Shown here: positions 45,784-53,659 of the stretch, piece by piece | Position numbering within the stretch: position 1 is the stretch's first letter | Layout: each line of letters begins with the position of its first letter | Source: Oscillospiraceae bacterium | GTDB lineage: Bacteria > Bacillota > Clostridia > Oscillospirales > Ruminococcaceae | Length of the DNA stretch: 64,000 nucleotides | Direction of reading: 5' to 3' | Assembly: GCA_014799385.1 (NCBI GenBank) | Contig: JAAVIC010000009.1 | Coordinates: 24,624-88,623, forward strand | Notes under the pieces: generated by a model | The model's input: the letters and a program-made list of their open reading frames with translations, nothing else | Databases searched by the model: none | Told to the model about the DNA's origin: nothing | Translations under genes and position numbers: made by a program

Positions 45784-47112
45784 TTAATCGTTCGTTATTT
45801 CATACCGTACCTGTAACGCGTGCCTATCCGTTTTTACCAGCGGTTCGGCGAGGTTGTTGATAGTTGCGAGGTAATCCGAGCGAAGCATGATCTGCGCCGC
45901 GTTTGTATCGCTGTTGCTCTTGTTGTATACCAATACGTACGGCAAACTCATATAATCTGCCGATTGCAGATTATTCGGCGTCCGTATGGAGACCATCGGG
46001 TCACGCTTAAAATAGGTATAGAAGCAATTGTTGAGTGAGTTGTCAACTACCAACACAGACTTACCGCTGTACGAGAAATTCAGAGCAACACTGGAAGCAT
46101 TTTCAAAAAAATAAGATTCCAATTGCTCTCCGTTCATGCTAAACACCCTCATATCGCCATATTCCGAAACGTAAATTTTGTTTTCGTGTATCCCGAAATA
46201 AGTGGTGATTGCGTGAGTTTTCGGAGTCCAGCTAAAGCTTCCCTCACGCTTTATTTCGCCGGTTCTGATGTCGAGCGCACAGAATTTCACATTCTCAATT
46301 TTGGTAGACGAATTATATGAGATATTAAAGTAATACTCCCATTTGTTCGACTTGTCATACGCGCAGCTTCTGTAATCGGTGGCGGCAAACGGCAATGTGT
46401 ATTCGTCCTTGCGAACGATCTCCATATTCCGGAAGTCGCTTATTGCCTCACCGATCCTAAGGGCGTTATAATCCGGCACACGGCAGCGGTAAATTATCGT
46501 TTTCTCTCTGTTTACATACATGGAATACAAAATTTGCCCGCCATCGGGATACCCCAAAAGTGTTCCCCTTGTATAGAAATACTCGACACGTGTGCTTGAG
46601 TCGGCATTCGTCATAACTACGGGATTCATCAGTATGCTTCCGTCTTGTTTTTCGCGGGTAAATGCCGCATTTCCGAACCAAAGACTGGTAAGCCCGATAC
46701 AACGAATCGTACCGATCGCCTTTTCGGGCGCGAAATCCCACACAAATCGGTATCCGCCGTCAATCTCGCCGCTCTGGCTCTGGTTCAATGTTCCGCGTGC
46801 GGGCGCGGTGCCCGTATACGCCGACCCCGCCAAACCTATAAAAACAGAATCCTCGGGAATCATAAACCTGTCGGGATTTTCATCAATGCTGTTTCCAAGC
46901 ATAACCAAGCCGCTCATAAGATACTTATAGATCGGCATAAACCCATTATACATTTCGCTTGAATTGCCCCTTAAAATTGCCTGTTTCGGAATTTCAAAAA
47001 TCCTCTGTATGGCGTTTGTCACCATATTGCTCTCCTCAACCCGTTTTACAACGCGCCCCGAATCGGGGTCGGTAAGGATAAGCTGCGCCTTGCCCTTCAT
47101 AAATAAAATCAC
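45784..47112 (-). CDS. Phage-type tail/appendage-like protein (start may be 47100)
   Basis: KGKAQLILTDPDSGRVVKRVEESNMVTNAIQRIF resembles a conserved start of Firmicutes prophage structural proteins; end of a phage structural gene set. Confidence 0.55.
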   Translation of the reverse strand: MILFMKGKAQLILTDPDSGRVVKRVEESNMVTNAIQRIFEIPKQAILRGNSSEMYNGFMPIYKYLMSGLVMLGNSIDENPDRFMIPEDSVFIGLAGSAYTGTAPARGTLNQSQSGEIDGGYRFVWDFAPEKAIGTIRCIGLTSLWFGNAAFTREKQDGSILMNPVVMTNADSSTRVEYFYTRGTLLGYPDGGQILYSMYVNREKTIIYRCRVPDYNALRIGEAISDFRNMEIVRKDEYTLPFAATDYRSCAYDKSNKWEYYFNISYNSSTKIENVKFCALDIRTGEIKREGSFSWTPKTHAITTYFGIHENKIYVSEYGDMRVFSMNGEQLESYFFENASSVALNFSYSGKSVLVVDNSLNNCFYTYFKRDPMVSIRTPNNLQSADYMSLPYVLVYNKSNSDTNAAQIMLRSDYLATINNLAEPLVKTDRHALQVRYEITND

Positions 47113-47126
47113 CCCTTATCTAAATA

Positions 47127-47374
47127 GCAAATTCAAAACCACGCAGACGCTTGCGTTTTGAATTTGCATTATCTTAAATTAATCCAAAATTTCGCGAGGC
47201 TTGGGCTCCGCTCCACTTCGTTCCGCTCTGCCAGCCTCGCGAAACCGCTCAAAATTCCCTTCGGGAATTTTGAGTCTTTTTGGATTTTCACCGGTCACCA
47301 ATAACTTGCTTTGGGTTATAACGCGATAGATCCGCAACCCAATAGGCTGCTTTAGGTTATAACCCAAATAACTG
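47127..47374 (-). repeat. Leader element E13, composite (hairpin a 47127-47167 and AAATCC-type hairpin b 47180-47287, then GTTATAAC domain)
   Basis: GCAAATTCAAAACCACGCAGACGCTTGCGTTTTGAATTTGC, then AATCCAAAATTTCGCGAGGC...TTTTTGGATT, then TCACCAATAACTTGCTTTGGGTTATAACGCG. Confidence 0.9.
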
Positions 47375-51805: not shown

Positions 51806-51930
51806 ACCATCGGAATCATATCCCCATTGCCGCCTTGTGCAATTCATTCATCGGACTAGCCGTCCCTAACTCACAGCGCAACAGCGAAGTGTTCCGATAT
51901 GTATGTAATTCCCTCCCGCCCTCCGTAAAA

Positions 51931-52311
51931 TTATTTGCCCGAGAAGATTCTCCGAATCGCGGAAAATCCGTCATTTCCGCCAGAGCTTGCCGCTGCGAAT
52001 TGCGGAATCTCGCGCTTCACCGCTCTTAAATGCGGATACGCACCGACAACCTCTTCCACCGCGTCCTCGATCGGCTTTCCCGAATCATACAAACCGCGAA
52101 CCAGCGCCGAAGCCTCGTCCAGCTTTTCGGCGGTAACACCCGCAATAAGCAGAGCGACTTTGATTTTCTCCGCCGTAAGGCTGTCCTCAAGCCGGGCTAT
52201 TTCCTCGGCGACCTTGTCGGGATTCTCATTGGGGCTGTCGGATTCCTCGGGATAAACAATCTCGTTATCCGCGGGGAACTCCTCGATATGCTCCTTGTCA
52301 TTGTTCTCCAT
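51931..52311 (-). CDS. Acidic helical protein, scaffold-like, in the phage cassette
   Basis: MENNDKEHIEEFPADNEIVYPEESDSPNENPDKVAEEIARLEDSLTAEKIKVALLIAG; sits between portal and capsid. Confidence 0.65.
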   Translation of the reverse strand: MENNDKEHIEEFPADNEIVYPEESDSPNENPDKVAEEIARLEDSLTAEKIKVALLIAGVTAEKLDEASALVRGLYDSGKPIEDAVEEVVGAYPHLRAVKREIPQFAAASSGGNDGFSAIRRIFSGK

Positions 52312-53659
52312 TAAAATCCTCCTTTTCCATTGCCTTTGCCGCGTCAAGCGAAATCCCGTAAATCTCGGACAACGCCCTCGCACGGGAAATCAATCCGCCC
52401 GCGTAAAGCTGACGCGCGCGTTCGGTCTTTGCGCCCTCGTCCTCACAGACGCCGTCCGCGAAACGAACACCCACCTCGGTAGACGCACCTGCGGAAAGCT
52501 CGCCCGCCATCTTCCCCAACAAGCAGATATTCTCCGCAACTCGGGAAAGCCCGTTTGCTATTGCCTTACGGTAGAATCCGGCAGTGCGGTAAGTGCGGCT
52601 GTTGCGGCTTACCACCTCGGTTGCCGTGCGTATCGTGCCGTTCTTGTAGGACAACGCTCCCTCTGACAGACCCACCTGCATACATAGCAAATCAAGCAGC
52701 TCTCCAAGAGCCTCGGTGTGCTCGGTAATTCGCAGCGTTCCGGTGTTGTCGATGATTTTCAAGTCATCGTTGTCATCGGCGGAAAGTGCCTCAAACACCT
52801 CGTCATTGACATCGAAATACCGTTTAAGCTCGCCCTTTGCGTCATATTCGCCGCGAATCGCGTAACTCGGCACGATGATTCGCTTTTTTCCGAGGACAAA
52901 CTCGCGCGACAGACTATCGAACACAACGTCCAGGGATTTCAGCGTATCCTCCGCGCCCGCGAACACCGAGGTTCCAAGCGGAACGCTCTCGGAGATTTCC
53001 CCCGCGCCAGCGCGGAAGTACACGAACAGCGGTTCGGACAATCCCTTGATAACGGATTTCTCAGTCATATCGGGAAAAACGTCCGCGAGATTTGCCGCTC
53101 CTCCGCCCGAACGGAACAACCGATTTTCGGTAACCAGACCGTCCTCGGTGAGCGTCTGCTGTTCGGCTAAAACGCAACTTCTGCCGTCTGCGCTGACTGT
53201 CGAGCCGAACGCGCCGCCGTAAATTCCGCGGCTGTCCCACTTAGTCGGGACGAACCTGTCCGCCGTAACGAAATCCAGCTTCGTGCCGTCCTTGTCGCGG
53301 TAGACCTTGATTACTCCGCCGCCCAGCGCGAACATCTTCTCCAGGAAGTCCGAAAACCTCTCCGCAAAGCCGCTGCTATCCAGAACGCGTTTCAGATACG
53401 CGGTGGATTCTCGGTCCGTGCCGATAAGCTCAGTCCCCTCGGTAAAGCACAGCCGAGCCAGCTCCGCGCAGACCGCCTTTGCCGCGCCCAGTGACGCAAC
53501 CCGGCGCATTCCGCCGTTGATTCCGCCCTTTCGGGTGTATCGCCAGTCGCCGCCGCCCTCGTAAATATCGCGCCACCGCGCGAGCTTCGCGGAGTAGAAC
53601 GTCATCAGCTCCGTGGAAGGCTCTGTCTGCCGACCGAAAATGAAACTCTTAAGTCCCAA
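52298..53659 (-). CDS. Phage portal protein
   Basis: ~450 aa; ...LSEGALSYKNGTIRTATEVVSRNSRTYRTAGFYRKAI...LSEIYGISLDAAKAMEKED. Confidence 0.8.
   Translation of the reverse strand: MGLKSFIFGRQTEPSTELMTFYSAKLARWRDIYEGGGDWRYTRKGGINGGMRRVASLGAAKAVCAELARLCFTEGTELIGTDRESTAYLKRVLDSSGFAERFSDFLEKMFALGGGVIKVYRDKDGTKLDFVTADRFVPTKWDSRGIYGGAFGSTVSADGRSCVLAEQQTLTEDGLVTENRLFRSGGGAANLADVFPDMTEKSVIKGLSEPLFVYFRAGAGEISESVPLGTSVFAGAEDTLKSLDVVFDSLSREFVLGKKRIIVPSYAIRGEYDAKGELKRYFDVNDEVFEALSADDNDDLKIIDNTGTLRITEHTEALGELLDLLCMQVGLSEGALSYKNGTIRTATEVVSRNSRTYRTAGFYRKAIANGLSRVAENICLLGKMAGELSAGASTEVGVRFADGVCEDEGAKTERARQLYAGGLISRARALSEIYGISLDAAKAMEKEDFNGEQ

What the first reader, a model, noticed from the sequence alone, without database searches (positions are those of the whole stretch)
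45784..53659. Reduced phage structural cassette, units separated by chromosomal-type leader elements
Portal, scaffold-like, major capsid, connector, head-tail, tail-associated and appendage-like genes lie on one strand. I see no terminase, protease, tape measure, major tail tube, lysis or integrase gene in or next to it. Leader elements identical in type to those on housekeeping genes precede the capsid, connector, 114-aa and appendage genes. This fits a decayed prophage, or a domesticated particle (for example a gene-transfer-agent-like or protein-shell device) under host-type control.
Basis: partly seen in the sequence, partly recalled or inferred. Interest (0 to 1): 0.85.

Follow-up and report, generated by a model that had tools for sequence, protein, structure and literature searches.

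The report
Domesticated phage particle genes, GTA-like
A group of uncultured gut bacteria has kept, at a fixed place in its chromosome, the genes for a stripped-down virus shell plus a DNA-pumping motor encoded elsewhere in the genome, which most likely makes small tail-less particles that package pieces of the bacterium's own DNA (a gene-transfer-agent-like system).

Summary
The cassette is real and intact: portal, scaffold, major capsid, head-tail adaptor, minor capsid 1, a 114-aa tail-tube-fold protein, a tail hub and a terminal appendage. It is not a decaying prophage. About 39 of 43 congeneric species carry it (60-95% portal identity), mostly with the same order and host neighbours. Distances track a host housekeeping gene (Mantel r=0.85); portal dN/dS against the sister species is 0.07.

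The 'missing' terminase exists: a TerS+TerL pair (TerL 67-95% identical across the genus) with intact catalytic motifs sits alone at another locus; 24 of 27 high-quality congeners have both loci. Relatives show a reduction series: full prophages (800-1000-aa tape measure); compact cassettes in other Oscillospiraceae (TerS-TerL attached, 235-250-aa tape measure); one genome without tube and tape measure; and the window's genus, tube-less with the terminase split off. All compact forms are one clade (support 100/99), apart from prophages.

Best reading: a new gene-transfer-agent-like viriform, resembling FpGTA of Faecalibacterium (PMC12946183) but differently split and further reduced. Packaging and delivery are untested. 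The 'leader elements' are real but lineage-specific: present in the nearest sister locus, absent from the other 17 congeneric loci checked.

The parts
52298..53659 (-). portal protein (453 aa, TTG start after GGAGG)
   Evidence: phrog_533 1e-100, PF05133 9e-17, A118-type portal TIGR01542 below cut-off; 60-95% identical orthologues in about 39 of 43 congeners
51931..52311 (-). scaffold protein (126 aa from the ATG; 150 aa from an upstream GTG)
   Evidence: phrog_2303 2e-8; same position in congeners
50545..51429 (-). major capsid protein (294 aa)
   Evidence: phrog_422 4e-99; alignment A1; tree
49830..50282 (-). head-tail adaptor (150 aa)
   Evidence: phrog_541 4e-9
49501..49833 (-). minor capsid protein 1, probably the stopper (110 aa)
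   Evidence: PF10665 5e-6, phrog_793 8e-4
48906..49250 (-). 114-aa protein with tail-tube-like predicted fold, probably the distal tube ring
   Evidence: phrog_1194 5e-12; model pLDDT 82; Foldseek matches to tube and baseplate-ring proteins, TM up to 0.60, E 2e-3 to 2e-2
47375..48901 (-). tail hub or tip protein (508 aa)
   Evidence: phrog_6616 tail protein 1e-33; N-terminal 330 aa similar to phage tail proteins of Firmicutes phages
45784..47091 (-). terminal appendage, fast-evolving, probably adsorption protein (435 aa from ATG; 442 aa from an upstream GTG)
   Evidence: phrog_19291 8e-34; 29-37% identity in congeners; not detected in several
51430..51900 (-). leader repeat copies before the capsid gene
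50283..50530 (-). leader repeat before the adaptor gene
49251..49500 (-). leader repeat before the 114-aa gene
47105..47372 (-). leader repeat before the appendage gene
45755..45779 (-). intrinsic-terminator-like hairpin after the last cassette gene
   Evidence: pattern scan; consensus match only
54079..54939 (+). divergent RpiR-family regulator next to the portal gene; neighbour in most congeners, possible regulator, role untested
   Evidence: PF01418 and PF01380; synteny

Best explanation
The cassette and a separate TerS-TerL operon (same genome, contig C1:4311-5818, outside the window) are two loci of one vertically inherited, host-owned, gene-transfer-agent-like system. Shown by sequence: scaffold and capsid genes for a head; portal, adaptor and minor capsid 1 for its neck; a conserved terminase with intact ATPase and nuclease motifs and a short TerS; loss of the tube, chaperone and tape-measure genes that relatives still have. 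Inferred: TerL loads pieces of host chromosome with little sequence specificity, because TerS lacks the usual phage TerS domain; the neck carries only a 114-aa tube-fold ring, the hub and the appendage, giving a tail-less or podovirus-like particle; the particle is released by lysis (genes not found) and probably delivers host DNA to related cells.
For: Intact cassette in about 39 of 43 congeners, same order and mostly same neighbours. Lone TerS+TerL in about 36 of 43, motifs invariant; 24 of 27 best genomes have both. TerS-TerL adjacent to portal in other genera. dN/dS 0.07 portal, 0.08 TerL. Distances track host mnmE, r=0.85 and 0.74. Host-like GC3. Compact forms one clade, 100/99. Tube and tape measure lost from the genus cassette. 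TerS about 80-95 aa without a terminase-family match, against a 179-aa Terminase_2 TerS in an ordinary phage locus. GTA-like packaging of host DNA has been measured in gut Oscillospiraceae and Ruminococcaceae (PMC12946183).
Against: No particle, packaged DNA or transfer was observed; all evidence is sequence. No lysis gene was tied to the system. Two well-assembled congeners (G206, G239) have the cassette without the lone terminase. Co-occurrence of the two loci is not significant because both are nearly universal (p=0.11). A neck without tube might not inject DNA.
Confidence: 0.75

Rival explanations
1. PBSX-like killing particle: it packages host DNA with the conserved terminase, but its selected role is to bind and damage related strains rather than to deliver genes.
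For: Fast-evolving appendage (29-37% identity while capsid keeps 71-79%) suggests changing targets; PBSX packages host DNA without injecting it (PMC12946183).
Against: PBSX-type particles kill with a tail; here tube and tape measure are gone. No immunity gene was recognised next to the appendage.
Confidence: 0.12
2. Empty protein shell or compartment: the capsid genes are kept for a shell function and the lone terminase serves something else, such as helping or exploiting resident prophages.
For: Terminase is unlinked; G206 and G239 have the cassette without it; prophage TerL about 50% identical exists in many congeners.
Against: Portal, adaptor and stopper have no use in an empty shell yet are conserved (portal dN/dS 0.07); lone TerS-TerL is at the portal in sister genera; TerL co-diversifies with portal, r=0.76.
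Confidence: 0.08
3. Decaying prophage remnant kept by chance.
For: No integrase, replication or lysis genes next to it; tail genes lost.
Against: Open frames in nearly all congeners and purifying selection; fixed site over about 25-30% protein divergence.
Confidence: 0.02
4. Capsid-forming phage satellite that borrows tails from a helper.
For: Head and packaging genes without a tail; ordinary prophages exist in the same genus and could donate tails.
Against: No integrase or replication genes next to it, fixed site in most species read, host-tracking distances, unlinked terminase, and its own hub and appendage genes.
Confidence: 0.03

Closest known systems
FpGTA of Faecalibacterium (FpGTA I and II; PMC12946183)
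   Same: Gut member of the same broad group of Clostridia; TerS without obvious DNA-binding domain, TerL, portal, scaffold and capsid genes; two unlinked loci; no replication genes; capsids seen without tails.
   Different: There the terminase stays with the capsid genes and tip, receptor-binding and lysis genes are at the second locus; here the tip stays with the capsid and the terminase is split off. Sequence relatedness not tested: no FpGTA sequence was obtained. FpGTA particles and packaged DNA were observed; here not.
RcGTA of Rhodobacter capsulatus
   Same: Phage-derived, vertically inherited, several loci, TerS without specific DNA-binding domain (PMC7947584); the 114-aa model resembles a chain of the RcGTA particle (TM 0.60).
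   Different: RcGTA has a tail with tape measure (PMC7947584); here none. No close sequence relation seen: only fold-level similarity.
PBSX of Bacillus subtilis
   Same: Gram-positive, domesticated, packages host DNA (13.4 kb fragments, PMC12946183); NCBI names the lone TerL 'PBSX family'.
   Different: PBSX acts as a tailocin-like killer (PMC12946183); this cassette has no tube or tape measure.
Tailed prophages of Firmicutes with phrog_422 capsids (for example L298, L243, Anaerotignum and Paenibacillus prophages)
   Same: Homologous capsid (about 50% in L298) and, in L298 and L243, the same 114-aa gene followed by the hub gene directly after the tape-measure place.
   Different: They have an extra minor-head-sized gene after the portal and, where typical, an ORF of about 670-1000 aa in the tape-measure place; those in the capsid tree lie outside the compact clade.

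Membership tests
Gene transfer agent (definition of PMC9662315) | Uses proteins derived from tailed phages | tested here: met
   Portal, scaffold, capsid, adaptor, minor capsid 1, tail and TerL families
Gene transfer agent (definition of PMC9662315) | Mostly encapsidates random pieces of host DNA | not testable with these tools
   Needs particle sequencing. Intact TerL and short TerS are compatible
Gene transfer agent (definition of PMC9662315) | Genome fully endogenized, often across multiple loci | tested here: met
   Cassette and TerS-TerL at unlinked chromosomal loci among host genes
Gene transfer agent (definition of PMC9662315) | Cannot package its whole genome because the head is too small | tested here: inconclusive
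   Head size unknown; but two unlinked loci (about 70 kb apart in G240) could not be packaged together in a small head
Gene transfer agent (definition of PMC9662315) | Mostly vertically inherited, co-diversifies with host | tested here: met
   Mantel r=0.85 (portal-mnmE) and 0.74 (TerL-mnmE), p<=0.0001; conserved site
Gene transfer agent (definition of PMC9662315) | Packaged DNA is delivered to other cells | not testable with these tools
   Needs a transfer experiment
FpGTA | Sequence homology of capsid and portal (RCH50849.1, RCH50851.1) | not tested
   No Faecalibacterium sequence was returned by two protein searches
FpGTA | TerS and TerL in the capsid operon; tip and lysis genes at a second locus | tested here: not met
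   Here tip genes are with the capsid and TerS-TerL are apart
Complete temperate prophage | Integrase, replication, tail, lysis and packaging genes together | tested here: not met
   Only eight structural genes between host genes; tube and tape measure absent from the own genome at profile level
Capsid-forming phage satellite (cf-PICI) | Integrase and horizontal mobility | tested here: not met
   No integrase next to it; fixed site and host-tracking distances

The most novel reading that the evidence does not exclude
A functional gene transfer agent that has shed the whole tail tube, its chaperones and the tape measure, delivers DNA through a neck reduced to connector, one tube-fold ring and hub, and has its packaging motor encoded at an unlinked locus, with intermediate stages of the reduction preserved in living relatives.
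Probability: 0.4. Interest if true: 0.88.

Novelty: new variant of a known kind. Interest (0 to 1): 0.74.

Why it matters
Gene transfer agents are known from few lineages, and in the papers found only one (FpGTA, 2026) is described from gut commensals. This would be another system with its own architecture, near-universal in a genus of 43 sampled species. Its phylogenetic series (full phage, short-tape-measure cassette, tube-less cassette, split terminase) lets one follow domestication step by step. It is a candidate type of source for the GTA-like packaging that PMC12946183 measured in Oscillospiraceae without finding the genes, although the taxa measured there were not compared here. It also asks how little tail a DNA-delivering particle can have.

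Tried and rejected
(1) Decayed prophage: rejected by near-genus-wide intactness and dN/dS. (2) Relocated tube and tape measure: 43 genomes searched with profiles A3 and A4. Three tube hits lie outside the cassette (in G220 about 8 kb from a prophage-type portal and TerL), and there is one partial tape-measure hit inside a 780-aa frame. (3) Relocated holin: the only PF05105 hit in the own genome is on C33 near a prophage. (4) Comparison with FpGTA: two protein searches returned no sequence named Faecalibacterium. (5) 114-aa protein against the phage collection by tblastn: no match. (6) PDB sequence searches for capsid profile, portal and hub: no match. (7) Appendage fold: only beta-propeller-like matches with TM below 0.3 by query length, not interpreted. 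(8) Sigma-70 promoter scan: no excess over shuffles (9 against 9.8). (9) Rfam: no family for the leaders. (10) Co-occurrence test of the two loci: not significant (p=0.11).
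Full report
WHAT IS THERE. The window is G000:C9:24624-88623 of a 2.69-Mb, 33-contig genome; near relatives are unnamed Oscillospiraceae or Clostridia gut MAGs. On the minus strand, 53659 to 45784, lie eight intact genes: portal, scaffold, major capsid, head-tail adaptor, minor capsid 1, a 114-aa protein, a tail hub and an appendage. A terminator-like hairpin follows the last gene. The cassette stands between phoH plus a hydrolase-like gene on one side and a divergent RpiR-family regulator, an HI0933-type flavoprotein, cmk and plsC on the other. 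No phage gene was recognised beyond its ends.

IT IS A NEAR-CORE FEATURE OF THE GENUS. Of 43 congeneric genomes about 39 have the cassette portal at 60-95% identity, nearly always as one uninterrupted frame (exceptions: G218 with one stop, G202 in pieces). Eleven congeneric regions of about 19-20 kb were read. Gene order is the same wherever the genes are detected; the appendage is missing or too diverged in several, and one contig (G204) is cut. Most regions have the same host genes at the borders; G206 has none of them in the stretch read. Against the sister species G226, dN/dS is 0.07 (portal), 0.22 (scaffold), 0.08 (TerL) and 0.24 (TerS). Against more distant congeners the computable ratios stay below 0.5, though many dS values are saturated. 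Pairwise protein distances correlate: r = 0.85 portal-mnmE, 0.74 TerL-mnmE, 0.76 portal-TerL; p <= 0.0001 by permutation. The cassette's third-position GC (0.56-0.68) is that of host genes (0.57-0.66 for six of them); three genes of a resident prophage on C33 give 0.52-0.54. This is neither decay nor a recent arrival.

THE TERMINASE IS ELSEWHERE. A search of the own genome for Terminase_6N gives two places. One (C33) is an ordinary prophage. The other, C1:4311-5818, is a lone pair: a 94-aa TerS-like protein and a 408-aa TerL, between a 313-aa gene and a gene with a Spo0A C-terminal domain, with no other phage gene recognised around it. The same TerL is found at 67-95% identity in about 36 of the 43, again away from the cassette (in G240 both are on one contig about 70 kb apart). 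Walker A (GSVRSGKT), the CDE motif and aspartates D247, D310 and D389, which I take for the nuclease centre, are invariant in an alignment with two other genera. The nearest solved structures are phage large terminases (5oea, 5oe8). In the 27 best genomes, 24 have both loci, one (G227) neither and two (G206, G239) only the cassette. Presence is nearly universal, so this co-occurrence is not significant by itself (p = 0.11). The functional link rests on other genera, where TerS-TerL and portal are adjacent, and on co-inheritance.

A REDUCTION SERIES. A scan of GTDB genomes with the capsid profile gave 70 loci, annotated with profiles made here (single genes). Full prophages (for example L298, L243): an extra minor-head-sized gene after the portal, an ORF of 800-1000 aa in the tape-measure place, then the 114-aa gene and the hub. 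Type I (termite, rabbit and other Oscillospiraceae; L164, L166-L171, L173, L192): TerS-TerL-portal-scaffold-capsid-adaptor-minor capsid 1-minor capsid 2-probable terminator-tube-two probable chaperones-a 230-250-aa tape measure-114-aa-hub-appendage, with host genes such as pyruvate kinase and phosphoglucomutase beside L170. An integrase-like 337-aa ORF lies about 5 kb from the L164 cassette, behind four host-type genes; no other integrase was recognised in the type I stretches read, but not every ORF was profiled. Type II (L165, a single case): one gene left between minor capsid 1 and the 114-aa gene, and a holin after the appendage, between host genes such as malQ. Type III (window genus): nothing left there, and the terminase apart. 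Profiles of the type I tube and tape measure find nothing in the own genome and, in the other 42, three tube copies outside the cassette and one partial tape-measure hit. In a capsid tree all compact types form one side of a branch with support 100/99; type III is one group at 94/91. One domestication followed by stepwise loss is the simplest reading; the order of losses is inferred.

WHAT THE 114-AA PROTEIN IS. Its AlphaFold model (pLDDT 82) is mostly beta, with a long hairpin and one helix. Best Foldseek matches are tail-tube and baseplate-ring proteins: phage Mu trunk, a chain of the RcGTA particle (TM 0.60), the SPP1 tube (TM 0.56). E-values are only 2e-3 to 2e-2, so this is a fold-class statement. 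In full phages and type I cassettes it sits between tape measure and hub, so it is most likely the distal ring of the tube. In type III it would be the only tube-like element left.

TERS. In types I-III TerS is about 78-96 aa (start codons uncertain, a few longer readings) and matches no terminase family. A 179-aa TerS of an ordinary phage locus of the order matches Terminase_2 at 6e-44. RcGTA TerS lacks a specific DNA-binding domain, which has been linked to random packaging (PMC7947584), and FpGTA TerS lacks an obvious one (PMC12946183). The parallel is suggestive, not proof.

HOW IT MOST LIKELY WORKS. Shown: the genes, their conservation, the intact motor, the missing tube. Inferred: scaffold-assisted assembly of a small head; TerL-driven loading of host DNA; closure by adaptor and stopper; a minimal tip of ring, hub and fast-evolving appendage for adsorption. 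Unknown: lysis, trigger, delivery. Confidence that it is a DNA-packaging domesticated particle of the GTA kind is about 0.75; that it really transfers genes, about 0.45.

COMPARISON WITH KNOWN SYSTEMS. Of the six features that define GTAs (PMC9662315), three are met here by sequence (phage-derived parts, endogenized over several loci, vertical inheritance), one is inconclusive (cannot package itself) and two need experiments (random packaging, delivery). It is therefore called GTA-like, not a GTA. The nearest described system is FpGTA of Faecalibacterium: two loci, about 40-nm capsids without visible tails, 8.4-8.9 kb of host DNA (PMC12946183). There the terminase stays with the capsid and tip plus lysis genes are apart; here it is the reverse. 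No FpGTA sequence could be obtained, so common origin is untested. Another compact cassette, with a P22-type capsid, occurs in a different family (f10) of the order (L231-L235), so such domestication has perhaps happened more than once in this order.

THE LEADER ELEMENTS. They are genuine: a repeat with a CAAATTC...GAATTTG-type inverted pair, usually one or two internal hairpins, and a ribosome-binding site just before the start codon. In the window 15 merged places were found, most oriented with the next gene. They are present in the sister locus L132 (99% capsid identity) and were not detected in 17 other congeneric cassette loci, where several of the same junctions are only 2-36 bp. Of those 17, four are the same genome as another entry (L138/L041, L144/L117, L148/L125, judged by identical gaps) or nearly so, so about 14 independent genomes were compared. 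They match no Rfam family. They are lineage-specific and do not define the particle system, although they may give several cassette genes their own expression signals here.

Noticed in passing
window 2200-2351, 5541-5654, 8600-8766, 10561-10720, 15932-16007, 18082-18460, 20029-20114, 40007-40232, 43131-43256, 45371-45620 and the four cassette copies: Dispersed leader-like repeat with inverted ends and internal hairpins whose arm sequences differ between copies while the pairing stays; it sits directly before start codons in gene orientation at most places, and was not detected in cassette regions of other congeners. No Rfam match. It may deserve its own study.
   Followed up: partly
L231-L235 (family f10, genera g135, g155, g206): A separate compact cassette: TerS, TerL, portal, scaffold, P22-type capsid (PF11651), connector genes, hub-like gene, in several copies a holin or amidase-like gene, between host-type genes and without a long tape measure. 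Possibly another GTA-like family, perhaps related to FpGTA.
   Followed up: partly
L049:6110-6916 (G000:C1): The gene after the lone TerS-TerL pair in the own genome has receiver and Spo0A C-terminal domains (sporulation regulator type). The same neighbour was found in the sister G226 but not in the other congeneric terminase loci read.
   Followed up: partly
L050 (G000:C33:260000-277334): An ordinary prophage-type module (terminase, portal, protease-like, capsid and tail genes) in the own genome, with a holin hit nearby on the same contig (252752-253090).
   Followed up: partly
L129 (G206), between scaffold and capsid genes: About 1.7 kb of extra DNA with a 314-aa ORF on the other strand interrupts the cassette; this species also lacks the lone terminase and the usual border genes in the stretch read.
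   Followed up: no
window 3845-5536: A 563-aa protein with about eight near-identical repeats of the type GGKMSQEDIE(K/R)MLAG(V/I)SEPEPTPEPEP.
   Followed up: no
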